A program made the position numbers and the translations under genes. A stretch of 64,000 nucleotides of DNA from positions 248,001-312,000 of the forward strand of contig NZ_CP121354.1 in the NCBI RefSeq assembly GCF_029674545.1, written 5' to 3'. Origin of the DNA: Mesorhizobium sp. WSM4904 (GTDB lineage: Bacteria > Pseudomonadota > Alphaproteobacteria > Rhizobiales > Rhizobiaceae). Within the stretch, counting starts at the first letter, position 1; each line of letters begins with the position of its first letter. Positions 6,317-37,073 of the stretch are shown piece after piece. The notes under the pieces are model-generated. The model saw only the letters and a program-made list of their open reading frames with translations, had not been told where the DNA came from and made no database searches.

Positions 6317-6391
6317 AACCGCTCTAACTATTTGTTTTTACGCATTCCGGACGGAAAATCGTTACACAGTTTTCCTGGAATTGCTCTAAAT
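6317..6391. repeat. Rhizobial intergenic repeat between convergent genes
   Basis: AT-richer element with an imperfect hairpin, ATTCCGGACGGAAAA against TTTTCCTGGAAT, bordered by CGCTCTAA and TTGCTCTAA. It has the character of a widely dispersed rhizobial intergenic element (recognised from memory). It lies between the ends of the LysR gene and exoP and could serve as a bidirectional terminator. Confidence 0.6.
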
Positions 6392-22537: not shown

Positions 22538-22648
22538 CAGATCGAACCCTTTGCCGAAACGCGCACGATCATGATCGGCCTCCCCGTCATTGTCGGCCCC
22601 ATTGTCGTTCGCCGGAGCCGATCGGCGGGAGGCTCACCGCAGCCGCCG

Positions 22649-23980: not shown

Positions 23981-24000
23981 TCGGTTCTGTTCCTGTTTAA

Positions 24001-24058
24001 GGCCGGGCCGCAGAACGACCCGGCCAGTTCAGATGTGCCCAGGCCCTTTTGGGCCTGG
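24001..24058. terminator. Two hairpins between exoK-like gene and ugd
   Basis: GGCCGGG (24001-24007) pairs with CCCGGCC (24019-24025); CCAGGCCC-TTTT-GGGCCTGG (24039-24058) is a perfect 8-bp stem. Both lie between two minus-strand genes and probably limit read-through from the GH16 gene into ugd; neither is followed by a clear T-run. Confidence 0.5.
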
Positions 24059-24065
24059 ATGTTGC

Positions 24066-24111
24066 GCATGATCTTATCCCAAAACCGGTCCGCCGTTTTT
24101 GGGGATCATGC
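24066..24111. repeat. Rhizobial palindromic repeat (GCATGATC...GATCATGC)
   Basis: GCATGATC (24066-24073) pairs with GATCATGC (24104-24111), extended by CCCAAAA against TTTTTGGGG. The form matches a dispersed rhizobial intergenic palindrome known to me from memory. It abuts the stop codon of the GH16 gene and may act as its terminator. Confidence 0.6.
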
Positions 24112-24984
24112 CTAGTTGCTGTTACTTATGCTGCACGCCAGCGATTCCGGGAACTGGCACGGCTGGCCCAAGGCGGTGAAGGCGACGCGCTTGACCTCCA
24201 TGGTCACCTTGCGGCCGGGATCGGCGAAGGCGCCCATCCAGTTGGTCAGCTTGTCGCTGCCCCACAGGCTGAAGAAGATCTTCTGCGGATTGGTCGGCAA
24301 TTCGTCCGGATTGGTCACTTCGTTGACCAGCTTGCCGTTGACGTACCAGCGCAGCCGGTCCTTCTCCCAGACGAAGCCATAGTCGTTGAAGCCCTTGTCG
24401 GCGCCGCCCCCGACATCGACCAGCTTGCCGTTCTTCGGCTTGCCCTGGATATAGCTGTTCACCTGGACTTTTGACGGATCCTTGGTGAGCACCTCGAAGT
24501 CGATCTCGTCCCAGGGCTTTTTGTCCTGCGGCCCGATATAGGTGAAGAACGCGGCGTTGAGGCCCGAGCCGCTATCGGTCTTCATCCGCGCCTCGTAGAC
24601 GCCATAGCCATAGCGCTGCTTGGTCTGGATCTCGGCGCAGGCGAACTCGCGATCCTTCAGCTTGCGTTTTTCGAAGCTCAGCGAAAGCACGCCGTCGGAA
24701 AGCCGAACCAGGTCCTTCGACCAGGTGCAGTTCTGGTGATTGCCATTGTTCCAGCCGTCGGAGACGAACCAGCGCGAACGGTCGAAGTTCGAGAAATTGT
24801 CGACAAAGGAGGGCGCGCTCTGCATGCCCTCGGCATGCGCCGGATGCGGGACGGCCGAGACTGCGGCTGCAACGGCGAGCAGCGCTCCTGCCAGGCTTGG
24901 CCAAGGACTGCGTGACCCATTCGAGCGCGGACGCGGCGTGCCGCAAGCTGCCGCGATGGACGTGTTGTTCGAATCTGCGTTCAT
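24112..24984 (-). CDS. exoK: Endo-beta-glucanase ExoK (GH16)
   Basis: 290-aa secreted GH16 enzyme. A hydrophobic segment (SLAGALLAVAAAVSAVPHPAHA, about 30-51) serves as signal peptide. The catalytic strand is WDEIDFEVL with Glu160, Asp162 and Glu164; GYGVYEARMKT and a final KRVAFTALG are typical of lichenase/ExoK proteins. ExoK cleaves nascent succinoglycan to lower molecular weight; here the same role on this EPS is expected. Start at 24984 (GGTGAG upstream) rather than 25014. Confidence 0.88.
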   Translation of the reverse strand: MNADSNNTSIAAACGTPRPRSNGSRSPWPSLAGALLAVAAAVSAVPHPAHAEGMQSAPSFVDNFSNFDRSRWFVSDGWNNGNHQNCTWSKDLVRLSDGVLSLSFEKRKLKDREFACAEIQTKQRYGYGVYEARMKTDSGSGLNAAFFTYIGPQDKKPWDEIDFEVLTKDPSKVQVNSYIQGKPKNGKLVDVGGGADKGFNDYGFVWEKDRLRWYVNGKLVNEVTNPDELPTNPQKIFFSLWGSDKLTNWMGAFADPGRKVTMEVKRVAFTALGQPCQFPESLACSISNSN

Positions 24985-25112
24985 GACAAACTCACCTTGT
25001 GTTGTCCGCCCCAACCCAAAGTCACTTCCCGCCCGCCTCAGCGAGCCGCTTCCGATCTTCCGCCCTTTGAACTCCTTTGGTCTCGTATCGATGATAGTGT
25101 CCGTGGATGCCT

Positions 25113-25502
25113 TCAGCCTCGTCCCGCGGCCTTCGCCAATCCGGTCGGCGCTTTGGTCTGCTGCGTGCCGTCGACAATCGCGTCGAGCGAATGACGCAGT
25201 TCCTTCATCAAGCCTTTCTGGCGCGTGAGCTCGGCGATGCGCCGCTCGTAGTTCAGGATCGCGCCGGTCATCGCGCTGACGTCCGACGACTTATCCGTCG
25301 ACGCGGAGCCGTTCTCCATCGCCTCGACCAGGAAGGCCGCGTTGGTCGCCGTCGACCGATAGCGATTCTCCAGCCCGGTTTTCTCGGCCTCGATCTCGGC
25401 GCCGATCTGGTCGAACAGCTTCGCCAGACGGTCGAAACGCTGGAGATCGGTCTGCCGGTCGCGGGCCGGGTCCCTGGATCTGAAGCCAAAAATCGAAGCC
25501 AT
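25113..25502 (-). CDS. Small coiled-coil protein of unknown function
   Basis: 129 aa, no recognised domain. Residues 15-100 are strongly helical with heptad-like spacing (FDRLAKLFDQIGAEIEAEK, then YERRIAELTRQKGLMKELR). No signal peptide or transmembrane segment, so cytoplasmic. I start at MASIFGFRSRDP (GAAAGG upstream); the longer frame to 25631 would translate a TGC palindrome at 25521-25538. A second, perfect palindrome lies 180 bases upstream inside the exoU coding end. The regulatory elements link it to the EPS regulon, but its role is unknown. Confidence 0.65.
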   Translation of the reverse strand: MASIFGFRSRDPARDRQTDLQRFDRLAKLFDQIGAEIEAEKTGLENRYRSTATNAAFLVEAMENGSASTDKSSDVSAMTGAILNYERRIAELTRQKGLMKELRHSLDAIVDGTQQTKAPTGLAKAAGRG

Positions 25503-25520
25503 TCGATTGGCCTTTCGCAA

Positions 25521-25538
25521 TTGCTGCACCGCAACATA
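25521..25538. promoter_or_regulatory. TGC palindrome before the coiled-coil gene
   Basis: TTGCTGCACCGCAACATA (CTGC-ACC-GCAA), 19 bases before the start codon at 25502. Position close to the start suggests repression if a protein binds it. Confidence 0.5.
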
Positions 25539-25627
25539 GACTGCCATTCTCGGGGCAAGTAGGCAACCTCGTAGTTTCGGAAAGCGGATTTTTTTGGAAA
25601 CGGCCCGACGCCGTTGCCGTCGTCCGA

Positions 25628-26644
25628 TCATTCCTTCGCGGCACTTGTCGCCGACATCAGGAAGCGCATCGGCGGCACTTGCTGCTTTGCAGCAATGCCG
25701 GCGCGGCGGAACAACGCGTCCAGCTTGTCGGCGGCCACGCCGCGAACGATCGGGATCAGATTGGACTGGCTGGCGAAAGCGTAGGCGGCGGCCGATGCCA
25801 GGCCGCGCTCCGCCTTCACGTCGAGGAAATTGCGCAGCCGGTATTTGTCACGCACATGGCGCTCGTGGCGCCGCAAGGCGGCCTTCGAGGCTTCCGGCAA
25901 GTTGCCGAGCGCCAGCAGCGCCAGATCGGCATCGGCAAGCCGCTTCAGATCCTGCGTCCTGTGGCGCCCGCTCAGCGAATCGGCGCGAACGATGGCGCCA
26001 TAGCCGCAAGATTTGATGATCTTGAAACGCGCTCCGCGCGCGACGGCGCGCGCATAGAGCTCGTAATCCTCGCCGAGCCGCAGGTTCTCGTCATAGCTCA
26101 ACCCGTGCCGGTCGAGGAACGCCCTGCTGATCACCGGTTTGAGGAAGCCTAGCTCGCCGCGCAGCACGCGGCGGCGGGAAATGTTGCCTTCGACGAAGCG
26201 CTCGAAGTCGAGGAATTGCGGTTCGGGCGCAAAGGAAGGAGCCGCGACCTTGGTGGGATCGGCCGCCGCATCGTCCCTGATCAGCATGATATTGTCGGCC
26301 GCGAAATCCCAGTCGGCGCTGGCGAACAGCCGGCGAAAGCGGCCCTCGAGGAAGAAATCGTCGGCGTCGAGGATGCTGATGAAAGGCGAGGCGGAGGCCT
26401 TGATCGCGGCGTTGCGGGCGAAGGAGGGACCGCGGTTGACGTCGAGACGCATGATCGAGAGCCGGCCGCTGCCGTCATCGGCGGCGCGCGCCACATTCTG
26501 GGTGTCGTCGGTAGAGGCATCGTCGACCACGACGACTTCCGCCACCTCCGGCTCGCGCAGAGCCGAAGCGATGGCGACCGGTATGGTCCGCGCCGCGTTG
26601 CGGGCGGCGATGATGACGCAGACCCTGGGGGTCGTCACGGGCAT
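25628..26644 (-). CDS. exoU: GT2 glycosyltransferase ExoU
   Basis: 338-aa GT2 enzyme. VCVIIAARNAARTIPVAIAS opens the fold; VVVVDDASTDDTQ and SILDADDFFLEGR hold the DxD metal/UDP site; LGEDYELYARAVARG is the acceptor-side segment. In succinoglycan assembly ExoU adds the fifth glucose (third of the side chain); this protein has the same length and N-terminal pattern. RBS AAAGGTG is well placed before ATG 26644. It is transcribed from the same strand and probably the same message as the lasso-type nucleotidyltransferase gene just upstream. Confidence 0.8.
   Translation of the reverse strand: MPVTTPRVCVIIAARNAARTIPVAIASALREPEVAEVVVVDDASTDDTQNVARAADDGSGRLSIMRLDVNRGPSFARNAAIKASASPFISILDADDFFLEGRFRRLFASADWDFAADNIMLIRDDAAADPTKVAAPSFAPEPQFLDFERFVEGNISRRRVLRGELGFLKPVISRAFLDRHGLSYDENLRLGEDYELYARAVARGARFKIIKSCGYGAIVRADSLSGRHRTQDLKRLADADLALLALGNLPEASKAALRRHERHVRDKYRLRNFLDVKAERGLASAAAYAFASQSNLIPIVRGVAADKLDALFRRAGIAAKQQVPPMRFLMSATSAAKE
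25679..25695. promoter_or_regulatory. Perfect TGC palindrome inside exoU 3-prime coding end
   Basis: TTGCTGCTTTGCAGCAA: seven-base arms around TTT, exactly the CTGC-N3-GCAG form published for PhaR. It lies in coding sequence (Ala-Lys-Gln-Gln) but about 180 bases upstream of the coiled-coil gene, where it could act as a second operator. Chance occurrence is possible. Confidence 0.35.
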
Positions 26645-26709
26645 GTTTCACCTTTCAATTGCGTGAGTGACAGCCCGCCCATGGCCCTGAATATGAAATC
26701 GGTCTTCAT
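26635..26709 (-). CDS. Possible 24-residue coupling mini-ORF
   Basis: Begins with an ATG that overlaps the stop codon of the nucleotidyltransferase gene (ATGA at 26709-26706) and ends 10 bases inside exoU. It reads MKTDFIFRAMGG...LKGETCP. Its likeliest role, if translated, is to carry ribosomes from one gene to the next. It has no recognised domain. Confidence 0.25.
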   Translation of the reverse strand: MKTDFIFRAMGGLSLTQLKGETCP

Positions 26710-27863
26710 CCGTTGCTCCGCACCGGCGCGGCAACGGCCGGCCGCTCGAAGATGCGCCGGCTGAGATCGGCGGAGGCCGCCCAGCCGGCTTCGGCCAGAT
26801 AGCGCACCGGCTCGCGGCCGCAGAGCTCCCATAGCACCGTCCGCCGCTGCGGCCAGCGCAACGACGACAGCCAGGGCGCGATCACCATGTGGAACAGGTC
26901 GGCATTGTCGATGCGCGCCAGGATCCGTGTGGCGCGATCCGAAAGCAGCGTGGCGGTGCCGCCAAGCAGGACATCGGCAGCGCGCAAACCAAGCAGCAGC
27001 GTATCGGCCAGACCTTGCTCGGCGGCATGGTCGAGCACCATCTTCTGCTCGGTTTCGCTCAACCGACTGGAAGCTGCCCTGACGTCGCAGACATAGCCGG
27101 CGCAAGGCTCGCGGTTGAAGAAGGCCTTGGCGACGCTGATGCAGGACAAGAGCAGCATGTCGGGCGCCGAAATCAAAGGCATGGCGGTTCCGGCAATCTC
27201 GATCTCGCGCTTGCGGCGCAGGAAGCCGTCTATGTCGCGCGGACTGGGCGAGCCAGGCTGCTGCAGCCGGTGGTGGAGATCGACCGTGGCGGCCCGAACC
27301 CCGTCGTCGCGGACCATGTGCTGCTCGCCGAGGAAGCGCACCCACCAGACCGAGCGCGACTTGCCCGCGACCTCGTAGCCGGCCGAGCGGAGGGCCTCGC
27401 GGGCGGCGAAGAAACCGGACGGCGAAACCAGTATGTCGACGTCGCCGGACGGCTTCATGAAATGATCACCATAGAGTAATTGCTGCTGCAGCGGCCCCTT
27501 CAGGAAGACGAAGTCGACCTGCCTGTCACGCAGCACCCGATGGATGGCGATCGAATCGCCGATGCAGGCGGCGTTCATCGACATGGTGCGCCGGCGATAG
27601 CCATCGAGCCATGCGAGCAATTCGGCAGGCGTCGCGGCGATCGCCCCGTGCGAGAGGGCCTTGAGCAAAAAGACCGCGACCTTGTTCAACCTCGCAATGT
27701 CGGCAACGTCGGCCACGGAGATTGCCGGAGCCGGCATGCCGCCATGGTCGGCGGCTCCCGCAGCCGGGTTGAAGAACAGCCGCAGACAGGCCTGCACATA
27801 GGCGACTTCGTCGGCGCAGCCGGACGCACGCAGCCTGTCGTAGGAAGCATCCTGCACGGCCAT
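26706..27863 (-). CDS. Nucleotidyltransferase-family protein of the lasso cluster (N)
   Basis: 385 aa. The segment FVFLKGPLQQQLLYGDH followed by SGDVDILVS (139-147, Asp141 and Asp143) is the catalytic pattern of the NTP_transf_5 family. Homologues accompany HPr-kinase-like genes in lasso clusters such as paeninodin and pseudomycoidin, where the enzyme is linked to further modification (glycosylation) of the phosphorylated C-terminus. It is divergent from the precursor gene across a 0.5-kb region. Start MAVQDASYD is preferred; a start 21 bases earlier (27884) is possible. The actual transferred group cannot be told from sequence. Confidence 0.72.
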   Translation of the reverse strand: MAVQDASYDRLRASGCADEVAYVQACLRLFFNPAAGAADHGGMPAPAISVADVADIARLNKVAVFLLKALSHGAIAATPAELLAWLDGYRRRTMSMNAACIGDSIAIHRVLRDRQVDFVFLKGPLQQQLLYGDHFMKPSGDVDILVSPSGFFAAREALRSAGYEVAGKSRSVWWVRFLGEQHMVRDDGVRAATVDLHHRLQQPGSPSPRDIDGFLRRKREIEIAGTAMPLISAPDMLLLSCISVAKAFFNREPCAGYVCDVRAASSRLSETEQKMVLDHAAEQGLADTLLLGLRAADVLLGGTATLLSDRATRILARIDNADLFHMVIAPWLSSLRWPQRRTVLWELCGREPVRYLAEAGWAASADLSRRIFERPAVAAPVRSNG

Positions 27864-28362
27864 GCCCGATGTCGTTCTCCACAAAACCGCCCGCGGCGTT
27901 TATACCGCACCTGCGAAGAAAAGCATCGGCAAAAATCAGAACGGTTATCCAGCGAGTTCCGAGGCGGCCTCGCTTCTGCAACCTTCGCGTTCAGATTCGC
28001 CGTGTCGCCGATCACTTTTGAAGACAGGCCCGGTGGGCCGCGACGTGACCCGGCAACCGGTATTTTCCGCGCTATCTTCTTCGCAGCTGCGAGAGCGCCA
28101 TTTGAGTTCGGAAACTTATTCGAACCAAATCAAATGCTTACTTAAACGGCAAAAAAGCAGCGTTGAGCGCCCGGACGATATCCGCCCAAAATGCAAAGGC
28201 CGGCGACGTCATCATCGACGACTGCCACCGCAACCGAGAATTGATTAATGCCCGGTAAATCAGGCTTGACTCATAAATGTTGCCGTGCAGCAATTGCAAC
28301 GCAGCATAGAAATGTGCTGGCGGCATTCTGAAGCCGCTTCCAGTCCTCAGTTGGAGAGTAAA
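27864..28362. promoter_or_regulatory. Divergent regulatory region of the lasso cluster
   Basis: About 500 non-coding bases between the nucleotidyltransferase gene and the lasso precursor. The left part is GC-rich and featureless; from 28090 onward it is AT-richer. Two adjoining TGC palindromes lie at 28278-28306. No convincing -35/-10 pair could be fixed by eye. Confidence 0.5.
28278..28306. promoter_or_regulatory. Double TGC palindrome upstream of lasso precursor
   Basis: TGTTGCCGTGCAGCAA (TTGC-CGT-GCAG) runs directly into TTGCAACGCAGCA (TTGC-AAC-GCAG), 57-85 bases before the precursor ATG. This is the same element found before exoY, exoQ and other EPS genes, so shared control is likely. 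Confidence 0.55.
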
Positions 28363-28515
28363 ATGGAACAGAATGTTGAGAAGCAACAGTACGAGACCCC
28401 CAGCCTGACGGTTCACGGTTCGATCGAAACGATCACGCAGGGCGGCGCTGGTACGACAGCGTTGGACGCGGCATTTCCCGCGCACACGCCGTTCGACCAG
28501 CTCACCTTCTCCTGA
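28363..28515 (+). CDS. Lasso peptide precursor (A)
   Basis: 50 aa, ribosomally made substrate of the cluster. The leader (1-26) has the Y-x-x-P motif (Tyr10, Pro13), Leu15, Gly19 and a Thr at position -2 (Thr25), the elements read by the B1/B2 proteins. The predicted core is residues 27-50 (24 aa): Gly27 as N-terminal ring residue and Asp35 as core position 9, giving a nine-residue macrolactam, GGAGTTALD, followed by a 15-residue tail ending QLTFS. Phe38, Phe44 and Phe49 are candidate steric plugs. The C-terminal Ser50 fits phosphorylation by the kinase encoded downstream. ATG 28363 has GGAGAG at 28353-28358; the frame is open to 28285 but lacks leader features. Confidence 0.88.
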   Translation: MEQNVEKQQYETPSLTVHGSIETITQGGAGTTALDAAFPAHTPFDQLTFS

Positions 28516-28524
28516 GGTTGCACG

Positions 28525-28566
28525 CGTTCGGAGTTGTCGGATTTTGGGGCTCCGAGCGTTTCTTTT
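28525..28566 (+). terminator. Terminator or attenuator after the precursor gene
   Basis: CGTTCGGAG (28525-28533) pairs with CTCCGAGCG (28550-28558) with one wobble pair, followed by TTTCTTTT. Lying between precursor and processing genes, it would let the precursor be expressed in excess over the enzymes, a common design in peptide clusters. Confidence 0.55.
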
Positions 28567-28678
28567 AAACAGGTGAGCCGGGGGGCTCATGCCTCCCGGC
28601 TTCCTGGCCGGGCGATCGCAGGCAACCGATCCCGGTCCAGGTCGGAAGACGCGTGGCGTTCAAGAACGAGGTTTTAGG

Positions 28679-28978
28679 ATGCACTGGAACCCATCGGACC
28701 ATGACCGCGTGGTCGCGACCGGCGACGCGGTGGCTTGCGAATTCGGCAACGGACTGGCGCTGCTCCATCTCAAATCCAACATCTACTACAGCCTGAACGG
28801 CGTCGGCGCCTACATCTGGGAGCTGATCCAGGAGCCACGACCGATCCTCGACATAAGAAGCGCCGTGATCGCGCGCTACGATGTCGAGGCCGAACGCTGC
28901 AAGGCCGATGTCGAAGGCTTGCTCAAGGGGCTGATCGAAGCCGGGCTTGCGAGGCTCCACCATGAGGAACTGGCCTAG
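28679..28978 (+). CDS. PqqD-like leader-recognition protein (lasso B1)
   Basis: 99 aa, PqqD/RRE fold that binds the precursor leader (Tyr-x-x-Pro region) and delivers it to the B2 protease. Typical pattern: ACEFGNGLALLHLKSNIYYS followed by LNGVGAYIWELI and a helical C-terminus (ADVEGLLKGLIEAGLARL). The start at ATG 28679 has GAGG with 7-base spacing; the frame extends upstream without homology. It overlaps the B2 gene by 17 bases. Confidence 0.87.
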   Translation: MHWNPSDHDRVVATGDAVACEFGNGLALLHLKSNIYYSLNGVGAYIWELIQEPRPILDIRSAVIARYDVEAERCKADVEGLLKGLIEAGLARLHHEELA

Positions 28979-29378
28979 GGCCCTCTCCCTTAGCGGCCCG
29001 GAGATGCTGTTTCTGGCGCGCTGTCTGGCGGTGGTCGGCCTCGTGCGGCTGGGGCTGACACTTTGCTCCTACAACCGTGTGCGCGCTCTGGTGACCCGGC
29101 TGGAGGCGAGGAATGTCGCCGGTATCGCCGATCTGCGGCGTGTAGCATGGGGCGTGGCCGCCGCGGCGCGTTTCGTGCCCGGCGCCAGTTGCCTCACCCA
29201 GGCTCTCGCCGGACAATATCTACTTGCCCGCCAGGGCAATGCCTCCAAGATCTGCATCGGCATCGAGCGCGGGACCGGCGCGGAGCTCAAGGCGCATGCC
29301 TGGCTGGTCAGCGGCGACCACATCGTGCTTGGCGGCTCGATCAACGGCTTCACCCATCTCGTCGATCACGGGCAATAA
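28962..29378 (+). CDS. Transglutaminase-like leader peptidase (lasso B2)
   Basis: 138 aa, the lasso B2 cysteine protease family that cuts after the leader. The catalytic Cys77 (GASCLTQALA) and His112 (KAHAWL) are present, with an Asp at 119 (SGDH) as the third residue. The N-terminal helix region is short, typical of split B1/B2 systems. The true start is ATG 28962 within the B1 gene; TTG 28947 is an alternative. Translation is likely coupled to B1. Confidence 0.87.
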   Translation: MRNWPRALSLSGPEMLFLARCLAVVGLVRLGLTLCSYNRVRALVTRLEARNVAGIADLRRVAWGVAAAARFVPGASCLTQALAGQYLLARQGNASKICIGIERGTGAELKAHAWLVSGDHIVLGGSINGFTHLVDHGQ

Positions 29379-29381
29379 GCC

Positions 29382-31304
29382 ATGAGCGGCATCGCCGGAA
29401 TTCTGCTGAGGCAAGACGGCGGACCCGCCCAGGCGACCGACATCCAGCAGATGCTGGCGCACATGCGCCACCGGGCCCGCGACGGCAGCTCGTGGTGGAC
29501 GGCGGGAAGCGTGGCGCTTGGCCATGCCTGGCTCGACACGACCGGCGAGAACGGCCCAGGCCCGCTGATCATGGCCGGCGGCAAGCTCGCCATCACGGCC
29601 GATTGCCGGCTGGACAACCGCGACGAGCTTCTGGCGCGGCTCGGCGCAGGCGACCGGCCGGTCAACGACGCGATGCTCCTGATGCAGGCCTATCTCACAT
29701 GGGGCGATGCCTGTCCGACCTATCTGCAAGGCGATTTCGCCTTCGCGATCTGGGACGCCGAGCGCCGGGCGCTGTTTTGCGCCCGCGACCATTTCGGCAT
29801 CAAACCTTTCCATTATCACTCGACCGCCAGGCGCTTCGCTTTTGCCTCGGAGATCGGCCCTCTCCTCGCTCTGGACGGTGTCGGCACGCGCATCAGCGAG
29901 CATCAGATTTCCGGCTTCCTTGCCGGATTGCCCGACGATCCGCAGTCGACCCAGTATGCCGAAATCTTCCGATTGCCGGCCCGCCATATCCTGACGGTGA
30001 CGGACAGCCAGGTGATGCTTCGTCCCTACTGGCAGGTCGAGCCTTCGCCCAGGCCGCTGCGCCCGGATGCCACTGAGGAATTCAGGCATCTCTTCTCACA
30101 GTCGGTGCGGAACCGGATGCGCGGCACGCCCGCCATAGGCGCGATGCTGAGCGGCGGCCTCGATTCGTCCTCGATCGCAGGCGTCGCCGGCCTGCAAGCG
30201 GCCGCGGAGCACAGACAGCGGCTGAAGACCTTCTCGCTGGTCTTCGATAAGGGCTCGCCGATGGACGAGAAGTCGTTCATCGACGCGGTGCTCGACCGGC
30301 ACAGGCTCGACGGCACGATGATTTCCGTTGGCAACTACGCGCCCTTCGCCGAGTTCGAACGCATCCTGGAGGAGCAGGAGGGGACGTTCCTCGCCCCCGG
30401 CCTGTCGTTGACCCGCAGCATCTACCGGACGGCGGGTGCCAAGGGGGTGAAGGTGCTGCTCGACGGTCATGGCGGCGACGAGGTCGTTTCGCACGGGCAC
30501 GGACTGCTGCATGAGCTCGCCAATGCCGGCCGATGGCTTGCGCTCTGGCGCGAGCTTCACGGCGCCACCGGCACCTATGGCGAAGGCATGCTCGCCATGT
30601 ATTTCCGATTCCTGACCGTCTATGGACCGGCATGGCGAATCGCCAGGTGGCGAAACCGGATGAACCGGCTTCTGTCCAGACTGCGGCTAAAGACCGCCGC
30701 ACAGGCGCGCGTCCCCGCCTGGGGCGCCCTGGTCAATGCCGAGCTTGCCAGGCGAACCGACCTCGTCGACCGCTTCCACCGGGCCGGCTACATGCCGCCC
30801 AGCGTGAGCGCCAGCGAGGCGCTCACCCATCGCTGGGTACTCTCGACCGGACTGGTGCCGCACGCCTTCGAAGTGCTGGACAAGGCCGCCGCCAATTTCG
30901 GCGTCGAGCCGCGCTATCCGTTCTGGGACAAGCCGCTGGTCGAGTTCTGCCTGGCGTTGCCCGGCGAGGAAAAGCTCCACAACGGCTTCGGCCGCCATGT
31001 GCTGCGCCAGGCGATGGAAGGCGTGCTGCCGCCGGCGGTGCAGTGGCGGCGGGACAAGATCGATTTCACCGCCAACCTGGTCAACGGCATGCTCCGAAAC
31101 CATCGCGACCTTCTGGACACCGTACTGGTATCCGAGGGCGACCGCATCGCGCCCTATGTCAATCTGAGCGAAGTCAACGCCGCCTATGCGCGGCTGCTGC
31201 AAAAACCAGGCGAAGCCGCGCCGCTCGATGTGCAATATGTCTGGCGCTCGATCTCGCTGTCGCTCTGGCTGCGGCGGATCCAGCCGATGGGGAGCCTCGC
31301 ATGA
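29382..31304 (+). CDS. Lasso macrolactam synthetase (C, asparagine-synthetase-like)
   Basis: 640 aa. It has an N-terminal glutamine-amidotransferase-like domain and a C-terminal ATP-PPi synthetase domain with SGGLDSSSIAG near residue 257. It activates the Asp9 side chain of the core peptide by AMP and closes the ring onto Gly1. The protein begins MSGIAG: the Cys2 nucleophile of real asparagine synthetases is Ser, so glutamine hydrolysis is not expected, in line with lasso cyclases. Four bases separate it from B2 and its stop overlaps the next start (ATGA). Confidence 0.88.
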   Translation: MSGIAGILLRQDGGPAQATDIQQMLAHMRHRARDGSSWWTAGSVALGHAWLDTTGENGPGPLIMAGGKLAITADCRLDNRDELLARLGAGDRPVNDAMLLMQAYLTWGDACPTYLQGDFAFAIWDAERRALFCARDHFGIKPFHYHSTARRFAFASEIGPLLALDGVGTRISEHQISGFLAGLPDDPQSTQYAEIFRLPARHILTVTDSQVMLRPYWQVEPSPRPLRPDATEEFRHLFSQSVRNRMRGTPAIGAMLSGGLDSSSIAGVAGLQAAAEHRQRLKTFSLVFDKGSPMDEKSFIDAVLDRHRLDGTMISVGNYAPFAEFERILEEQEGTFLAPGLSLTRSIYRTAGAKGVKVLLDGHGGDEVVSHGHGLLHELANAGRWLALWRELHGATGTYGEGMLAMYFRFLTVYGPAWRIARWRNRMNRLLSRLRLKTAAQARVPAWGALVNAELARRTDLVDRFHRAGYMPPSVSASEALTHRWVLSTGLVPHAFEVLDKAAANFGVEPRYPFWDKPLVEFCLALPGEEKLHNGFGRHVLRQAMEGVLPPAVQWRRDKIDFTANLVNGMLRNHRDLLDTVLVSEGDRIAPYVNLSEVNAAYARLLQKPGEAAPLDVQYVWRSISLSLWLRRIQPMGSLA

Positions 31305-32290
31305 ACGGTTCAGCCGCTCCCATCGCGACCAGGCCGGATCCCGACATCGGGCCCGAAGATCTGAGCGGGCGCGTTCGCCGCTTCTACAGAGCCTATGGCC
31401 TGACGATCAGCTCCGAGGTGGCGCTGCCGGAGTTGCAGCCGACGGTGCCGGCGCCGCCCGATATCGCGATCGCAGTCGGCCCGGTCGACTTTCCCAGGCC
31501 TGCAATGGAAGGCGGAACCGCCTTTCGCTTCGAGCCGACGCGCCAGTATCTGTCTTGGCAAGCCGTCGGCACCTTCCTGATCAGCGATGCTTCCAGGATC
31601 GATGTCGATCCGGCGCCGGGCATCGACGATCCGCTGCTCGCCTTCCCGCTTTTGGGTCCGGTGCTGGCGCTCACCCTCCATCAGCGCCGCCTGCTCGTCC
31701 TGCACGCCAGCGCGATCGCCGTTGGCGGCCAAAGCGTGGTCTTCATGGGCGACAAGGGCGCCGGCAAGTCGACCACGGCGGGAGCGATGATCCGCGCCGG
31801 TCACCTTCTGCTTACCGACGACGTCGTGGCGCTGGACCTGTCCAACCCTTCCCGGCCGATGATCCTGCCTGGCTTTCCGCAGCTCAAGCTCGCAACCGAC
31901 GCCGCCGACGCCGTCAGGATCGGCCAGGCGGAGGTGCGGCCGCAGGTGCATCCGCAAATCGAGAAGGCGCAGCACCGTCTCCACAACGGATTTTCAGATG
32001 AAGCAGCGCCCCTTGCGCGAATCTATATGCTGAAGCGCGGCGAGCGGGCGGCGATCACGCCGCTGCCAGGCGCCGGCGCCCTGCCGGCGATCATCAGGTT
32101 CTCCTACGTCACCCGGTTCGGCCGGCAGGCGCTGGTCGGCGATTTCGCTTCCGCGCATCTCGGCCAGTGCGCGCAGCTAGCCGCCAAGGTCGGGGTCGGC
32201 CATCTCGAAGTGCCGGCAGGGCTCGAGCGGATCGACGAGGCCGTCGCCCTGATCGAGCGCGATCTGGCCGCCGGCACGCAGGCAAGGTGA
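31301..32290 (+). CDS. HPr-kinase-like lasso peptide kinase (K)
   Basis: 329 aa. HPr-kinase/PEPCK-like C-terminal half with Walker A GDKGAGKST (150-158) after VLHASAIAVGG, and LLTDDVVALDL as the metal-binding strand. Homologues in lasso clusters (ThcoK, PadeK) phosphorylate the side chain of the C-terminal Ser of the precursor; here the precursor ends in Ser. The start forms an ATGA overlap with the cyclase stop codon, indicating tight co-translation. A regulatory HPr kinase is unlikely given the context and the divergent N-terminus. Confidence 0.8.
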   Translation: MNGSAAPIATRPDPDIGPEDLSGRVRRFYRAYGLTISSEVALPELQPTVPAPPDIAIAVGPVDFPRPAMEGGTAFRFEPTRQYLSWQAVGTFLISDASRIDVDPAPGIDDPLLAFPLLGPVLALTLHQRRLLVLHASAIAVGGQSVVFMGDKGAGKSTTAGAMIRAGHLLLTDDVVALDLSNPSRPMILPGFPQLKLATDAADAVRIGQAEVRPQVHPQIEKAQHRLHNGFSDEAAPLARIYMLKRGERAAITPLPGAGALPAIIRFSYVTRFGRQALVGDFASAHLGQCAQLAAKVGVGHLEVPAGLERIDEAVALIERDLAAGTQAR

Positions 32291-32298
32291 GCGGACGC

Positions 32299-34206
32299 AT
32301 GGCCCAGTCCTCGAAACTTCGCCTGTCGCTCTTGCGGGATGTCGCCGGCTTCGGCGGCGTGATGGCACAGATCGGCGGGCGGCGCACGCTGACGGCGCTG
32401 GCCTTCCTGATCCTGGGAAGCCTGACCGAGGGCCTCTCGATCCTGCTTGTGATCCCGCTCCTGCACCTGATCGGCAATGCCGACCAGGATTTTGCCGTGC
32501 GGGTGCCCGGCGCTCTGCGCTGGCTTCTACCCGGCGGAACGCTGTCGCTTGCGACGGTGCTCTGTCTGCTCGTCGGACTGGTGGCGCTGCAGGCGATGTT
32601 CAACCGCTTCAAGTCGCTCTACATGGCGCGGCTGCTCTACGACTTCGTCAACCGCGTGCGCATGAACCTGTTCGAGAGTGTCGGCAAGGCGCGCTGGGGC
32701 GTCTTCACCCGCATGCGCGGATCCGATCTCGACCACGCGCTGACCGGCGACATCGACAGGGTGCAGGCGGCGGCCTTCTCGCTGCTGATGCTCGCCCAGA
32801 CGACGTTGCTGCTTGCCGGCTACCTCGTGGTCTCGCTGTTCATCTCGCCGGTGATGACATCCTTCGCCATTCTCATCGGCGTGATCCTGTTCGTTGCAAT
32901 GCAGCCCTTCCGTGCGCGTGCCACCGCCTATGGCCGTGTGCTGACGAGCAGCCGCCAGGACCAGTACCGCACGGTCTCGGAATTCCTTGGCGGCATCAAG
33001 GTGGCCAAGAGCCTGAATGTGGAAGCGGGCTATTTCGCGCAGCTCCGAGCGACACTCGAGAAGATGAAGGCGGACAACGTCGCCTATGTCCGCAACAGCA
33101 CCATCGGCACCGCGCTGTTCCAGGTGGCGAGCGTCATCGGGCTCAGCCTGTTCATCTACATCGCGCTGGTGCGCTTCCATCTGTCGCTTGCGGAAATCGT
33201 CGTGCTGCTCTTGGTCTTCATGCGGGTCGCGCCGCGCTTCATGGATATGCAGACGCAGGCGCAGCAGGTCCTGATCAACCTGCCGGCATACACCGCCATG
33301 CAGGCCTTGCAGGCGCGCTTCGACGCCGAGCGCGAGACGGAGCCCGGCGATGCCGGGCAGGACGCAAGGCTTTCGCTCGACACCGGCCTCAACGTCCGCG
33401 GCGTCTCGTTCGCCTATGGCGACGGAAAGCCGGTGGTCGGCGGCATCACCTTCGGCCTTCCCGCCGGCAAGGTGACGGCGCTGATCGGTCCGTCCGGCTC
33501 GGGCAAGAGCACGATCGCCGACATACTGCTTGGGCTGCTCGAGCCGACCGAGGGCAGTATCCTGGCCGATGGCGTCGAGATCACCGCCAAAAGCCGCAGG
33601 GCTTGGCGCGATCAGGTGGCCTATGTGCCGCAGGACGTTTTCCTGCTGCATGACACCATCGCCGCCAATCTGCGCCTGGCGGCGCCGCGGGCCGAAGACG
33701 AGGAACTCTGGGCGGCGCTGCGCAAGGCGCATGCGGCCGACTTCGTCGAGCGGCTCGACCGGCGGCTGGAAACGGTGGTGGGCGATCGCGGCGTCAGGCT
33801 CTCAGGCGGCGAACGCCAGCGCATCGCGCTGGCGCGAGCGCTGTTGCGCAAGCCTTCGCTGCTCATCCTCGACGAGGCGACGAGCGCGCTCGACTGGCAG
33901 AATCAGTCGCTGATCGCCCAGTCGATCGACGGGCTGCGCGGCCAGATGACCATCCTCACCATCGCGCACCGGCCATCGATGATCGCCTTCGCCGACTGGG
34001 TCGTAGCCATCGAGAACGGGCGTATCGTCGAGGTCGGGCAATATCAGCAGCTGAAGGCAAAGTCCGGCAGCCGGCTGGCCAGGATGCTCTCCGGCGAACG
34101 GGCCGAACGGGACGCCGAGACGTCGGCCGACAAGACATTGGCGGACAGGGCGCCGCTTCCCACGCCCGCTGAGCGGTCAGCGGAGACTGCCGCGCCTGGC
34201 GGTTAG
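32299..34206 (+). CDS. ABC exporter of the lasso peptide (D)
   Basis: 635-aa fused half-transporter. About six membrane helices occupy the first 320 residues (TLTALAFLILGSLTEGLSIL onward), followed by an ATPase with Walker A GPSGSGKST (397-405), signature LSGGERQRIALARAL (501) and Walker B LLILDEATSALD. It exports the mature lasso peptide and gives self-immunity in characterised systems. GTG 32287, overlapping the kinase stop codon, is an alternative start. The last 30 bases overlap the convergent exoX gene. Confidence 0.85.
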   Translation: MAQSSKLRLSLLRDVAGFGGVMAQIGGRRTLTALAFLILGSLTEGLSILLVIPLLHLIGNADQDFAVRVPGALRWLLPGGTLSLATVLCLLVGLVALQAMFNRFKSLYMARLLYDFVNRVRMNLFESVGKARWGVFTRMRGSDLDHALTGDIDRVQAAAFSLLMLAQTTLLLAGYLVVSLFISPVMTSFAILIGVILFVAMQPFRARATAYGRVLTSSRQDQYRTVSEFLGGIKVAKSLNVEAGYFAQLRATLEKMKADNVAYVRNSTIGTALFQVASVIGLSLFIYIALVRFHLSLAEIVVLLLVFMRVAPRFMDMQTQAQQVLINLPAYTAMQALQARFDAERETEPGDAGQDARLSLDTGLNVRGVSFAYGDGKPVVGGITFGLPAGKVTALIGPSGSGKSTIADILLGLLEPTEGSILADGVEITAKSRRAWRDQVAYVPQDVFLLHDTIAANLRLAAPRAEDEELWAALRKAHAADFVERLDRRLETVVGDRGVRLSGGERQRIALARALLRKPSLLILDEATSALDWQNQSLIAQSIDGLRGQMTILTIAHRPSMIAFADWVVAIENGRIVEVGQYQQLKAKSGSRLARMLSGERAERDAETSADKTLADRAPLPTPAERSAETAAPGG

Positions 34207-34443
34207 CTTTTCGCCCTCGGCCACCTTGATGCCGCGGTCGGCCTCCCGGGCCTTTTCGGCGGACATCGGCCTGCTGCTGGCGATCATCGCATAGACCAGA
34301 AGGAAATAGCCCGCCTGAATGATGACGGCGCAAATGACGGCACGCATGATGATGGTGCCAAGCGATGCTCCGTCGAAGTAGGACCAGCCGACCACGATCG
34401 CGAGCGCGAATAACATTCCGACGATGAATTTTGGCAAAGACAT
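34177..34443 (-). CDS. exoX: EPS production repressor ExoX
   Basis: 88-aa inner-membrane protein with two hydrophobic helices (PKFIVGMLFALAIVVGWSYF and AVICAVIIQAGYFLLVYAMI) and a charged cytoplasmic tail. Size, topology and its place divergent from exoY match ExoX/PsiA, which lower EPS output post-translationally, probably by acting on the ExoY glycosyltransferase. The start MSLPKF is chosen at 34443; the longer frame upstream has no membrane-protein character. Its 3-prime end overlaps the exporter gene by 30 bases. Confidence 0.8.
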   Translation of the reverse strand: MSLPKFIVGMLFALAIVVGWSYFDGASLGTIIMRAVICAVIIQAGYFLLVYAMIASSRPMSAEKAREADRGIKVAEGEKLTARRGSLR

Positions 34444-34909
34444 GCTCGTCGGCCCGTCAACCGACACAAGCATGCAAAAGCAGTGACTTACCCACCCGCG
34501 TAACTCCCCGTTGCGCCAAAGAGCTATTTCTGGCTGCCCAATTCGGCCGGTTGCTTCCGACCTTCCTGACCCATCCAAACTATGACAGAAACAGTTTGCG
34601 ACTCTATTAAGGCGAAGCCTTTGCAACAAGGCCAAATGCAGGTGATTTCCAACGGTTTCGCGGCATCGACTCCGCCATGCTGCGACGCACACTCCGGCAT
34701 CGCCGCCTATTCACCACAACGAAACCCTCGATAGTAGAACCCAAAACATTAATTAGTATTTTACGCTAAGAACTTACCGGCGCGAGTGATTCTTACGCCC
34801 TGCAACCGCTGCTCGTCTGCAGCAAAGAATGCACTGCCCAAAAACAGCCCAAAAGCGGCACTACATTTCGCAAAAATTCTCTCACCTTGTCATAAACATG
34901 CCACAAAGG

Positions 34910-34923
34910 CCAAAATTTGGGCA
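34910..34923. promoter_or_regulatory. CCAAAATTTGGGCA palindrome upstream of exoY
   Basis: Same 14-mer as at 8929-8942 upstream of exoP. Candidate binding site shared by two EPS promoters; the binding protein is unknown. Confidence 0.35.
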
Positions 34924-34985
34924 CGGCAGGTTTATTATTTAGTCAATTCATGACGCGAACATTTCACGCGGATGGGAAATTGTGT

Positions 34986-34999
34986 GTTGCGCTGCAGCA
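34986..34999. promoter_or_regulatory. TGC palindrome upstream of exoY
   Basis: GTTGCGCTGCAGCA (TTGC-GCT-GCAG), 52-65 bases before the exoY start, followed by a T-run (TTTTTTT). Candidate PhaR/AniA-type site. Confidence 0.5.
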
Positions 35000-35050
35000 T
35001 TTTTTTGGTATCGTGCCGTAAACCATCCGTTCAACGTATGGAGCTTCTGC

Positions 35051-35728
35051 ATGAGGGACGTCGCCAAGTCGGCTAATGCGGCTTTTTCGCAGGCTGGCAT
35101 TGATTTTCCACCCCCCATCGGCGGTCTGCTCAAACGCAGTTTCGATATCGTCGGTTCCCTGGCGGGCCTGGTTCTGCTCAGCCCGCTCTTCCTGATGGTC
35201 GCGCTGCTGGTCAAGCTTTCCGACGGCGGGTCGATCTTCTATGGCCACAAGCGAATCGGTCGCGGCGGAAGGATCTTCGCCTGCCTCAAATTCCGCACCA
35301 TGGTGCAGGACGGCGAGCGGGTGCTGGCCGCGCACCTCGCCGCCAACCCCGACGCCGCCGCCGAATGGGCGGCGACGCGCAAGCTGAAGAACGACCCGCG
35401 CGTGACGCGTGTCGGCGCGGTGTTGCGGAAGCTCAGCCTCGACGAGCTGCCGCAAATCATCAACATCCTGCAGGGCGACATGAGCCTGGTCGGGCCACGC
35501 CCCGTCGTGCGCGACGAGCTCGAAATCTACGGCAGTGCAGCCGTCTATTATCTGAAGTCGCGTCCCGGCCTCACCGGGCTGTGGCAGGTGAGCGGGCGTA
35601 ACGACGTGTCCTACGACACGCGCGTCGCCTTCGATCGCCACTATGTCGAGAACTGGTCGATGGTCGAAGACATCCGCATCATCGTGAAGACCGTGCCTGC
35701 CGTGTGGATGTCGCGCGGCAGCTATTGA
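35051..35728 (+). CDS. exoY: Undecaprenyl-phosphate galactose phosphotransferase ExoY
   Basis: 225 aa, the initiating enzyme that links galactose-1-phosphate to undecaprenyl phosphate. One N-terminal membrane anchor (FDIVGSLAGLVLLSPLFLM) is followed by the bacterial sugar transferase domain: CLKFRTM, RKLSLDELPQIINILQGD, SLVGPRPV and GLWQVSGRND. Length equals that of S. meliloti ExoY when ATG 35051 is used. First gene of the exoYFZ run and target of ExoX control. Confidence 0.93.
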   Translation: MRDVAKSANAAFSQAGIDFPPPIGGLLKRSFDIVGSLAGLVLLSPLFLMVALLVKLSDGGSIFYGHKRIGRGGRIFACLKFRTMVQDGERVLAAHLAANPDAAAEWAATRKLKNDPRVTRVGAVLRKLSLDELPQIINILQGDMSLVGPRPVVRDELEIYGSAAVYYLKSRPGLTGLWQVSGRNDVSYDTRVAFDRHYVENWSMVEDIRIIVKTVPAVWMSRGSY

Positions 35729-35735
35729 CCGACGG

Positions 35736-35762
35736 GCCTGCCCCGCCGAACTCGGGGCAGGC
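35736..35762 (+). terminator. Perfect hairpin between exoY and exoF
   Basis: GCCTGCCCCG (35736-35745) pairs with CGGGGCAGGC (35753-35762), 10-bp stem and 7-base loop. No T-run follows, so attenuation or mRNA processing between exoY and exoF is more likely than full termination. Confidence 0.45.
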
Positions 35763-35816
35763 ATCCGGCAGTGATCTCATCGGGCGGATGGGGCCAACGC
35801 GGATCGGAAACGTTCA

Positions 35817-37073
35817 TTGAAAACATACACCTTCGGACTCCTTTCCAAGGCGCCCAGCCGGTTCGCGGCCGTGGCGCTCGTAATGTGTCTTGCGACGCCA
35901 CAGACGGCGACGGCCGAGGACTATCGGCTCGGCCCGCAAGACAAGCTCAACATCCGCGTCGCCGAATGGCAGACGGTCGACGGCACGTTCCGCGACTGGT
36001 CGGCCATCAACGGCGACTATTCGGTCGGTCCCGCCGGGACGCTCTCGGTGCCTTTCGTCGGAGAGATGCAGGCCGCCGGCAAGACGACGTCGGAGATCGC
36101 GACGGCGATCGGGGTTGCGCTGCAGCGCAAGCTGGCGCTGCCCGACAAGCCAGAAGCCTCGGTCGAAATGGCGCAGTTCCGGCCATTCTACATTTCGGGC
36201 GAGGTGCAGAATCCCGGCCAGTTTCCTTTTGTGCCCGACCTTACGGTGCTGAAGGCGGTGAGCATCGCCGGCGGCATCCGTCGAAGCGCCGACTACGGCC
36301 CCCAGCTCGGCAAGGACCTCGTCACCGCCAAGGGCAGTTTCGACATCTATGACGACCAGCGGCTGCGGCTGCTTGTCAAGCGCGCCCGCATCGATGCGGA
36401 CTTGGCCGGCAAGACGAGCTTCGAGGTTCCGAAGGAGGTCGAGGGCGATCCGCGCGTGCAGGCGATCGCTGCCGATGAAATGCAGATTCTCACGGCCGAC
36501 CAGAAGGCGCTGAAGCTGAAGCTGGACGCGCTCGACGACCTGAAAGGGGTTCTGCAGGGCGAAATCGAATCGCTGCAGAAGAAGATCGGCAACCAGCAGC
36601 AGCAGGTGGATCTGGCGCAGCAGCAGCTCACCAGCATCGGCCCGCTGGCACAGAAAGGCCTGGTCGCCAATGCGCGGCTGCTCGATTCGAAACAGTCGGT
36701 GGCCGACCTGCAGGGCAAGATCCTCGACTATGAGACGGCCATCCTCACGGCCAAGCAGTCGATCAGCAAGGCCGAGCAGGACGCCATCGATGCCCGCAAC
36801 ACGCTCAACTCCAACCTGGCCGCCAGCCGGCAGCAGGCCGAAGCCGACCTGAACGAGGCGACGCTGAGGGTGGCCATGCAGAAGGGTCTGATCGCCCAGG
36901 CGTCGGACCCCGCGACGATGGCTTCCATCACCGGCAGCGAGCAACCGACCCTGCTCTACTCGCTGGTGCGCGTTGCCGACGGCAAGACCAGCGAGGTCGA
37001 CGCCAAGGAAGACACGCCGGTGCTGCCGGGCGACGTGATCAAGGTCAAGCTGGCGCCGACGGCCAGTCAATAG
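35817..37073 (+). CDS. exoF: Polysaccharide export protein ExoF
   Basis: 418 aa. A signal peptide (ending near TATAEDYRLG, about residue 35) leads into a Wza/poly_export domain (GPQDKLNIRVAEW, then GPAGTLSVPFVGEMQAAGKT) and an SLBB-type segment (FYISGEVQNPGQFPF). A long coiled coil follows from about 215 to 360 (KALKLKLDALDDLKGVLQGE...). It forms the periplasmic/outer-membrane part of EPS export with ExoP. Start is TTG 35817; no ATG in frame fits the signal peptide. Confidence 0.88.
   Translation: MKTYTFGLLSKAPSRFAAVALVMCLATPQTATAEDYRLGPQDKLNIRVAEWQTVDGTFRDWSAINGDYSVGPAGTLSVPFVGEMQAAGKTTSEIATAIGVALQRKLALPDKPEASVEMAQFRPFYISGEVQNPGQFPFVPDLTVLKAVSIAGGIRRSADYGPQLGKDLVTAKGSFDIYDDQRLRLLVKRARIDADLAGKTSFEVPKEVEGDPRVQAIAADEMQILTADQKALKLKLDALDDLKGVLQGEIESLQKKIGNQQQQVDLAQQQLTSIGPLAQKGLVANARLLDSKQSVADLQGKILDYETAILTAKQSISKAEQDAIDARNTLNSNLAASRQQAEADLNEATLRVAMQKGLIAQASDPATMASITGSEQPTLLYSLVRVADGKTSEVDAKEDTPVLPGDVIKVKLAPTASQ

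What the first reader, a model, noticed from the sequence alone, without database searches (positions are those of the whole stretch)
26706..34206. Complete lasso-peptide cluster with predicted C-terminal phosphoserine, embedded in an EPS locus
Seen: a 50-aa precursor with Tyr-x-x-Pro leader, Thr at -2, Gly1 and Asp9 of the core, then PqqD-like B1, B2 protease, cyclase, HPr-kinase-like K and ABC exporter in tight order, and a divergent nucleotidyltransferase. Known: ThcoK/PadeK-type kinases phosphorylate the C-terminal Ser of lasso precursors, and this precursor ends in Ser. Inferred: the product is a 24-residue lasso with a nine-residue ring, phosphorylated at Ser24. From the sequence I calculate a monoisotopic mass of about 2374.12 Da for the cyclised core and about 2454.09 Da with one phosphate. 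Placement between exoU and exoX/Y is unusual and suggests a role in the same life stage as EPS.
Basis: partly seen in the sequence, partly recalled or inferred. Interest (0 to 1): 0.92.

Follow-up and report, generated by a model that had tools for sequence, protein, structure and literature searches.

The report
Conserved lasso peptide in exopolysaccharide locus
A bacterium of the legume-symbiont genus Mesorhizobium carries a complete gene set for a knot-shaped, probably phosphorylated and sugar-tagged peptide inside its slime-sugar gene block, and most genus members examined keep the same set in the same place with an almost unchanged peptide, which hints at a basic cell-surface job rather than a weapon.

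Summary
A (28363-28515), B1, B2, cyclase, HPr-kinase-like K and ABC exporter form one tight operon, with a divergent PF14907 nucleotidyltransferase (NT). The masses are right (2374.123 / 2454.089). The reading is right but incomplete: K plus a nucleotidyltransferase is the pseudomycoidin set, so phosphate plus one or two hexoses (2616.14 / 2778.20) is the better prediction; NT's kinship to PsmN was not tested. The main result lies beyond the finding. K is kept in 103 of 146 same-genus genomes, the window's included. All 102 other loci have the same gene order between an exo glycosyltransferase and an exoX-like gene and exoY. All 103 precursors end in Thr-Phe-Ser with Gly1 and Asp9 invariant. 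Lasso genes diverge in step with exo genes (r = 0.93). In 20 genomes without it the site is closed, 7 with clear exporter remnants. Four loci of other genera carry the same cluster, three with exo genes beside it. A cyclase-less kinase/PqqD/B2/NT cassette lies 25-32 kb away. Lasso clusters in polysaccharide loci are known in Bacilli, role unknown (PMC13381572). Function and chemistry are untested.

The parts
26706..27884 (-). NT: PF14907 nucleotidyltransferase-like tailoring enzyme (candidate PsmN-type); true start perhaps 27863
28242..28262 (.). operator-like inverted repeat TGATTAA-N7-TAAATCA, next to a TTGACT hexamer
   Evidence: best match upstream of A: 77 of 103 exact, 22 with 1 mismatch, 3 with 2, 1 with 3, about 120 nt before A; the only exact site in the genome for the degenerate pattern
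28363..28515 (+). A: 50-aa lasso precursor, 26-aa leader and 24-aa core GGAGTTALDAAFPAHTPFDQLTFS
28524..28559 (+). hairpin just after the A stop; in many relatives the arms differ but stay paired
   Evidence: mean best Watson-Crick stem in the first 60 nt 7.4 against 4.8 in one mononucleotide shuffle each; 76 distinct arm pairs in 103 loci, some of them surely not this hairpin. An automatic alignment fold did not recover it
28679..28978 (+). B1: PqqD-like recognition protein
   Evidence: PF05402 66.3 bits; start
28962..29378 (+). B2: transglutaminase-fold leader protease
   Evidence: NF033537 66.8 bits over cut-off 33
29382..31304 (+). C: lasso isopeptide (macrolactam) cyclase
   Evidence: NF033535 751.5 bits; the only match to that model in the genome at E 0.001
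31301..32290 (+). K: HPr-kinase-like peptide serine kinase
   Evidence: PF07475 31.2 bits, just under cut-off; model pLDDT 87.8 matches PEPCK and HprK/P folds; H135, K156, D173, D174 invariant in 18 rows
32299..34206 (+). D: ABC exporter
   Evidence: PF00005 119.7 and PF00664 47.3 bits; start
34177..34443 (-). neighbour: ExoX-like EPS repressor, 3' end overlapping D by 30 bases here
   Evidence: NF052519 36.7 bits, below its cut-off of 140; PF11089 23.0 against 25
   Evidence: PF00535 83.7 bits
34982..35728 (+). neighbour: exoY-like undecaprenyl-phosphate sugar transferase
   Evidence: TIGR03022 312.6 bits, under its cut-off of 403; PF02397 216.4 bits

Best explanation
This is the Mesorhizobium member of the kinase-type (paeninodin / SyanA / pseudomycoidin) lasso peptides, and it has become a widely kept part of the exopolysaccharide locus. 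B1 binds the YxxPxL leader. K phosphorylates the C-terminal Ser24 of the linear precursor, once or more. B2 cuts after Thr-Gln. C closes Gly1 onto Asp9 around the tail. NT, a nucleotidyltransferase fold with its acidic residues kept, adds sugar (or a nucleotide or phospho-sugar) to the phosphate. D exports the product. It most likely acts at the producer's own surface together with the exopolysaccharide, as a decoration, cap or controller of the polysaccharide, not as a narrow weapon. Shown by sequence: the gene set, the conserved residues, the synteny, purifying selection, and presence in an ancestor followed by loss in some lineages. Inferred from characterised relatives: lasso formation (about 0.9), phosphorylation (about 0.8), glycosylation (about 0.5). 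Inferred from genomics alone: a role tied to EPS (about 0.45).
For: Gene families. Precursor invariant at Gly1, Asp9, Phe12, Pro13, Thr16, Pro17, Thr22, Phe23 and Ser24 in 103 of 103 rows. K present in 103 of 146 genus genomes at E below 1e-100, the window's included. Same order in all 102 other loci, 99 with every marker found. Distances of lasso and exo proteins correlate at r = 0.93, with 0 of 999 permutations reaching it. On a tree of exo proteins presence/absence needs 4 changes against 18.9 in shuffles. Closed sites in 20 of 20 fetched genomes without the cluster, 7 with clear exporter remnants. Same cluster in four loci of other genera of the family, with exo genes beside three of the four. 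A second kinase/NT cassette 25-32 kb away in most pairs read. Literature: K and NT act on pseudomycoidin (PMC9266682 passages; PMC8498205 passages); co-localisation with capsule loci and parallel up-regulation with an EPS gene in Bacilli (PMC13381572, section 7 and passages).
Against: No product, mass or expression is known. Losing the cluster does not cost the exo locus: of 43 genomes without K, 35 keep the exo glycosyltransferase, so EPS does not need the peptide. In 15 more distant K-bearing loci from 13 genomes (L229-L243) none of the tested exo proteins was found in the fetched stretch, so the exo link is not a rule for HPr-kinase clusters. The palindrome before A is not shared with other exo promoters in the window. 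The second cassette is separated from the exoP-like gene by about 7 kb that includes a propionate-CoA ligase and a LysR regulator. In the Bacilli work deletion of a similar NTP transferase (LppN) did not change the products seen in the host used (PMC13381572). That NT is the same family as PsmN was not tested.
Confidence: 0.6

Rival explanations
1. An antibacterial lasso peptide (bacteriocin) exported by D, with D also giving self-protection, used against other soil bacteria.
For: Many characterised lasso peptides are antibacterial (recalled). An ABC exporter is present. A different, sporadic K-bearing cluster occurs in 4 of 146 genomes (G037, G040, G087, G143), the pattern expected of weapons.
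Against: Most sampled genus members would be producers and presumably immune (103 of 146). The core is under purifying selection (pN/pS 0.274), inherited with its neighbours and kept at one site, unlike exchanged bacteriocins.
Confidence: 0.2
2. A secreted signal or regulator that tunes EPS synthesis (for example through ExoX/ExoY) without being attached to the polysaccharide.
For: The operon runs head-on into an ExoX-like gene beside exoY, overlapping it by 30 bases in the window; this gene order is kept in all 102 loci, with matched ends of D and the ExoX-like gene a median of 34 bases apart. It has its own conserved palindrome and a hairpin.
Against: No receptor was looked for or identified. 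The exo glycosyltransferase persists without the cluster in 35 of 43 genomes.
Confidence: 0.25
3. A passenger: position and co-divergence reflect vertical inheritance in a stable chromosomal block, with no link in function to EPS.
For: Losses occur without loss of exo genes. Distant K-bearing clusters show no tested exo neighbours. The second cassette lies about 7 kb outside the exoP-like gene.
Against: Two separate kinase/NT cassettes lie near the same block. Loci in other genera show the same exo neighbourhood. Paeninodin-type clusters in another phylum also often sit in capsule loci (PMC13381572).
Confidence: 0.3

Closest known systems
Pseudomycoidin cluster (psm, Bacillus pseudomycoides)
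   Same: Cyclase-made lasso with HPr-kinase-like K and an annotated nucleotidyltransferase; C-terminal Ser phosphorylated, then one or two hexoses (PMC9266682 and PMC8498205 passages)
   Different: Here in an alphaproteobacterium, NT divergently transcribed, inside an exo locus and kept across a genus; chemistry unproven; sequence relation of NT to PsmN not tested
SyanA/SyanK (Sphingobium yanoikuyae) and ThcoA/ThcoK
   Same: Kinase acting on the C-terminal Ser, the Sphingobium one in a proteobacterium; polyphosphorylation possible (PMC9266682 passages)
   Different: The passages read mention neither a nucleotidyltransferase nor EPS placement nor genus-wide conservation for these two
Paeninodin-like lasso and LPP clusters in capsule loci of Bacilli (PMC13381572)
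   Same: HPr kinase plus NTP transferase RiPPs beside polysaccharide genes, a lasso and a cyclase-less cluster near each other, roles unknown (section 7 and passages)
   Different: Different phylum. There the linear family uses a signal-peptidase-like protease; here the second cassette keeps a lasso-type B2. Here the lasso position is the same in 102 fetched loci
Clade-wide lasso predictions in Erythrobacter (PMC9723273)
   Same: Lasso clusters predicted in a whole clade of eight named species and others (passages), so clade-wide presence of lasso clusters is not new in itself
   Different: The passages read give predictions of cluster type only; no fixed site, core conservation or EPS link is described there

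Membership tests
Lasso peptide biosynthetic cluster | Precursor with YxxPxL leader, Thr at -2, Gly1 and an acidic residue at 7-9 | tested here: met
   Tyr-17, Pro-14, Leu-12, Thr-2, Gly1, Asp9 invariant in 103 of 103 rows; NF033521 and NF033528 over cut-off
Lasso peptide biosynthetic cluster | B1 recognition protein, B2 protease and C macrolactam cyclase | tested here: met
   PF05402, NF033537 and NF033535 over cut-off; the two lasso-specific PqqD models matched below theirs
Lasso peptide biosynthetic cluster | Threaded product | not testable with these tools
   Needs MS and NMR of the product
Kinase-type (paeninodin/SyanK) lasso peptide | HPr-kinase-like protein with the His-Lys-Asp-Asp motif | tested here: met
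   H135, K156, D173, D174 invariant in 18 rows; assignment to the published motif is my inference; fold match to HprK/P and PEPCK; PF07475 at 31.2 bits is just under its 33.3 cut-off
Kinase-type (paeninodin/SyanK) lasso peptide | Precursor ending in Ser | tested here: met
   Ser24 in 103 of 103 rows; also in the other-genus loci L223-L227
Kinase-type (paeninodin/SyanK) lasso peptide | C-terminal Ser phosphorylated | not testable with these tools
   No mass data
Pseudomycoidin-type (phosphoglycosylated) lasso peptide | PsmN-related nucleotidyltransferase in the cluster | tested here: inconclusive
   PF14907 gene present, in 101 of 102 loci; no PsmN sequence was at hand and the paper search for PF14907 with lasso found none
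Pseudomycoidin-type (phosphoglycosylated) lasso peptide | NT able to catalyse (nucleotidyltransferase fold and acidic residues) | tested here: met
Pseudomycoidin-type (phosphoglycosylated) lasso peptide | Hexose on the phosphate | not testable with these tools
   No mass data

The most novel reading that the evidence does not exclude
The lasso peptide is not a free metabolite but is joined through its phosphoserine, by NT, to a sugar of the exopolysaccharide or its lipid-linked precursor. The product would be an interlocked peptide-polysaccharide conjugate of the cell surface. The second, cyclase-less kinase/NT cassette near the other end of the exo block would make a linear partner of the same kind.
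Probability: 0.12. Interest if true: 0.95.

Novelty: new variant of a known kind. Interest (0 to 1): 0.68.

Why it matters
What phosphorylated and glycosylated lasso peptides do is an open question; the 2026 paper on their Bacilli relatives says so outright (PMC13381572). Here is one that most sampled members of a genus of legume symbionts keep at one site, inside the exo genes, with an almost unchanged core. That turns the question into a genetic test in a non-pathogenic symbiont with measurable EPS and nodulation phenotypes. It also provides natural knock-outs (genomes with closed sites) and a set of predicted masses. If the link to EPS holds in two phyla, HPr-kinase plus nucleotidyltransferase would mark a class of polysaccharide-associated RiPPs.

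Tried and rejected
Shared regulation with exo genes: the palindrome before A has no second exact site in the genome and one site with 1 mismatch elsewhere, so a common operator is not supported. Sigma-70 promoter and intrinsic terminator scans of 27800-28760 found none. RNAalifold on a gappy MAFFT alignment did not recover the A-B1 hairpin; a gap-free stem search did, with one mononucleotide shuffle per row as its only control and with some best stems plainly elsewhere in the stretch. Rfam: no match in 24000-37000 at gathering scores. The idea that the second B2 gene is a second lasso cluster was rejected: the genome has one match to the lasso cyclase model and the window's cyclase matched nothing near it in 8 loci. 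Motif searches found clear precursor-like ORFs for the second cassette in 3 of 8 loci and none in the window's own genome. A PsmN comparison could not be made: the JBC paeninodin paper is not held and no PsmN sequence was at hand. Papers: no report of this Mesorhizobium cluster was seen in the open-licence PubMed Central library, going by listings of the searches lasso peptide + Mesorhizobium, lassopeptide + Mesorhizobium, Mesorhizobium + exoU + exopolysaccharide + asparagine synth, lasso peptide + rhizobia (20 of 27 listed) and lasso peptide + exopolysaccharide + biosynthetic gene cluster + conserved (15 of 27 listed). Subscription journals are not covered. NCBI already names single precursors 'lasso peptide [Mesorhizobium ...]'. 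Papers of which passages or a section were read: PMC9266682, PMC8498205, PMC13381572, PMC9723273; none was read whole.

Rows dropped: of 43 genomes without K, 35 gave the exo glycosyltransferase and 20 of these 35 were fetched. The four divergent K hits (L134-L137) were left out of the 102-locus counts. Of 19 further K places in the class search 13 stretches were fetched, and 2 stretches from the phylum search. In the tree, L178 carried the remnant label on an E of 0.004. Frame flags: NT in 13 loci, D in 10, C in 3, B2 in 1, exoY in 67. The stops in NT all fall at residue 7, those in D at 604-615 of 636, those in exoY nearly all at residue 9, so they are start and end effects; the two- or three-frame flags (NT L080, B2 L126, C L077, L104, L116, D L120) were not resolved.
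Full report
Observation. The window holds a complete lasso cluster at the coordinates given: A 28363-28515, B1 28679-28978, B2 28962-29378, C 29382-31304, K 31301-32290, D 32299-34206, all on the plus strand, with NT 26706-27884 on the minus strand. The precursor is above cut-off for two NCBIfam lasso models, B2 and C are above theirs, NT is PF14907 at 120.5 bits, and K reaches 31.2 bits against a cut-off of 33.3 for PF07475. The core has 24 residues. The gene is real by selection: pN/pS is 0.039 for the leader and 0.274 for the core, from uncorrected counts over all pairs of 103 rows.

Distribution. The window lies at 248001-312000 of a 6.65 Mb single-contig genome. The named relatives of K in genome contigs are Mesorhizobium records in 26 of 28 loci; the other two are an unclassified Hyphomicrobiales MAG and Caulobacter sp. 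S45. The closest, at 97% K identity, is a Mesorhizobium MAG. Of 146 same-genus genomes including the window's own, 103 carry K at E below 1e-100 (my count's table; 66-97% identical to the window's K). In 14 of these, the window's included, the gene lies on contig 1, plus strand, at 239-280 kb (read off by hand). The 102 loci other than the window were fetched. All show the same order: exoK, 25113, GT2, NT in one direction; A, B1, B2, C, K, D in the other; then an exoX-like gene, exoY, exoF. 99 show every marker; the other 3 lack end markers only, one of them (L094) because the contig begins there. A, B1 and K were found without a flag in 102 of 102 loci. Stops flagged in NT, D and exoY fall at the first or last few residues of the query and are start and end effects; two- or three-frame flags in four genes of six loci were not resolved.

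Precursor. 103 precursors fall into 51 sequences and 32 cores, counting one row with an unreadable residue (L039). One row (L104) begins with a non-ATG codon in the 50-residue frame. Gly1, Asp9, Phe12, Pro13, Thr16, Pro17, Thr22, Phe23 and Ser24 never vary. A search of 5.8 billion proteins gave 31 relatives, several named lasso peptide by NCBI. I read 28 of the 31; all 28 end in Thr-Phe-Ser, though P0030 has an aberrant core.

Inheritance and loss. Pairwise protein distances of the lasso genes (NT, B1, B2, C, K, D) and of four exo genes correlate at 0.93, with 0 of 999 permutations reaching that. On a tree of exo proteins with 103 present and 20 absent rows the trait needs 4 changes, against 18.9 for shuffled labels; well-supported branches force 3. 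43 genomes lack K. None has the cyclase at E 1e-60 (without a positive control in that call), and 35 have the exo glycosyltransferase. In all 20 of these 35 that were fetched, the glycosyltransferase stands next to the exoX-like gene, exoY and exoF. Seven have a clear piece of D's C-terminal part at that place: L176, L177, L179, L180, L181 and L183 by protein at E 5e-4 or better, and L184 by DNA (131 bases, E 3e-18; its protein match is E 0.006). Weaker protein traces are in L178, L182 and L186 (E 0.004 to 0.06). A hit in L193 (29%) is a different transporter gene away from the site. L179 also has a weak DNA match to the NT start (E 4e-4). The remnants lie in two separate parts of the tree, L179 and a clade of 11, so the cluster was present in an ancestor and was lost at least twice. 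L089, which has the cluster, groups with cluster-less rows, so a regain is not excluded. The four deepest rows (L192-L195) show no clear remnant and may never have had it.

Beyond the genus. Of 394 family genomes searched, 11 matched K at 1e-10, five of them outside the genus. Four of these (L224-L227) carry the same cluster. L224 and L227 have exoF, exoY and an exoX-like gene on one side. L224 and L226 have GT2 on the other, and L226 has exoK too. L225 is a short contig with only cluster genes. Their 24-residue cores share LD..F...TP...LT.S with the window. L226's core begins with Gln, so the first residue is not universal. Caulobacter sp. S45 (L223) has B1, B2, C, K, NT, glycosyltransferases and a protein with Wzc-like domains nearby. 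In 15 more distant K-bearing stretches from 13 genomes (L229-L243) none of the tested exo proteins was found. That test used Mesorhizobium exo proteins at E 1e-3 over about 7 kb each side.

A second cassette. A search for the B2 family in 144 same-genus genomes matched 111, and by my count of the table 92 had two matches (its list of places was cut). In about 40 pairs on one contig, read off by hand, the two lie 25-32 kb apart, with one exception near 12 kb (G102). I looked at the second place in 8 genomes only. In the window's genome it lies just left of the window (L246, G000:C1:238000-250000): NT2 (PF14907, 96.8 bits), K2 (PF07475, 23.3 bits, under cut-off), B2b (NF033537, 68.8 bits) and B1b (PqqD, 43.1 bits). 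No cyclase was matched there, and the same four genes occur in the 7 other loci fetched. Lasso-type leader peptides without the ring acid were seen near it in 3 of 8 loci. It is not directly joined to exo genes: about 7 kb with a propionate-CoA ligase and a LysR regulator lie between it and the exoP-like gene at window 6391-8775. A lasso cluster and a cyclase-less phosphopeptide cluster side by side among polysaccharide genes were reported in Bacilli, with the roles of both unknown and parallel up-regulation with an EPS gene by RT-qPCR (PMC13381572, section 7 and passages).

Control signals. A palindrome TGATTAA-N7-TAAATCA lies about 120 nt before A in the genus: 77 of 103 exact, 22 with one mismatch, 4 with two or three. 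It has no other exact site in the genome. A hairpin follows the A stop codon, in many rows with different arms that stay paired. Both suggest a dedicated control of this operon.

Judgement. The gene set is ordinary for kinase-type lasso clusters, and clade-wide lasso predictions exist elsewhere (Erythrobacter, PMC9723273 passages). The surprise is evolutionary: a lasso cluster kept at one place inside an exo locus by 103 of 146 sampled genus members, with a near-constant core. I take this as evidence for a house function at the cell surface, about 0.45 likely to be tied to EPS. The passenger reading stays open because the cluster is lost without loss of exo genes.

Noticed in passing
L246:6698-9447 (G000:C1 about 244.7-247.4 kb, just left of the window): Second conserved cassette NT2, K2, B2b, B1b without a cyclase; its B2 gene lies 25-32 kb from the lasso B2 in nearly all of about 40 pairs read off.
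   Followed up: partly
L248:6532-6633 (-), L250:5418-5510 (-), L252:6304-6396 (-): Short ORFs with a lasso-type leader (Y.APVLRKAG) and short cores without a ring acid, near the second cassette; candidate linear phosphopeptides.
   Followed up: partly
L134-L137 (G037, G087, G040, G143): A different, sporadic kinase-bearing lasso-like cluster in 4 of 146 genomes, K about 28-30% identical, no exo protein matched beside it.
   Followed up: no
window 28242-28262: Palindrome before A, the only exact site of its pattern in the genome and kept in the genus; a dedicated regulator is likely but unidentified.
   Followed up: partly
window 28524-28559: Hairpin after the precursor stop codon with arms that vary together in many relatives; no Rfam match.
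   Followed up: partly
window 21092-23980: A GMC-type oxidoreductase and a UDP-glucose dehydrogenase next to exoK, within the exo block.
   Followed up: no
L226:10713-10859 (-): Relative whose predicted core begins with Gln instead of Gly while keeping Asp9 and the C-terminal Ser.
   Followed up: no
L227:11294-12433 (+): The NT stretch of this other-genus locus contains a stop codon, so NT may be broken, mis-sequenced or given the wrong start there.
   Followed up: no
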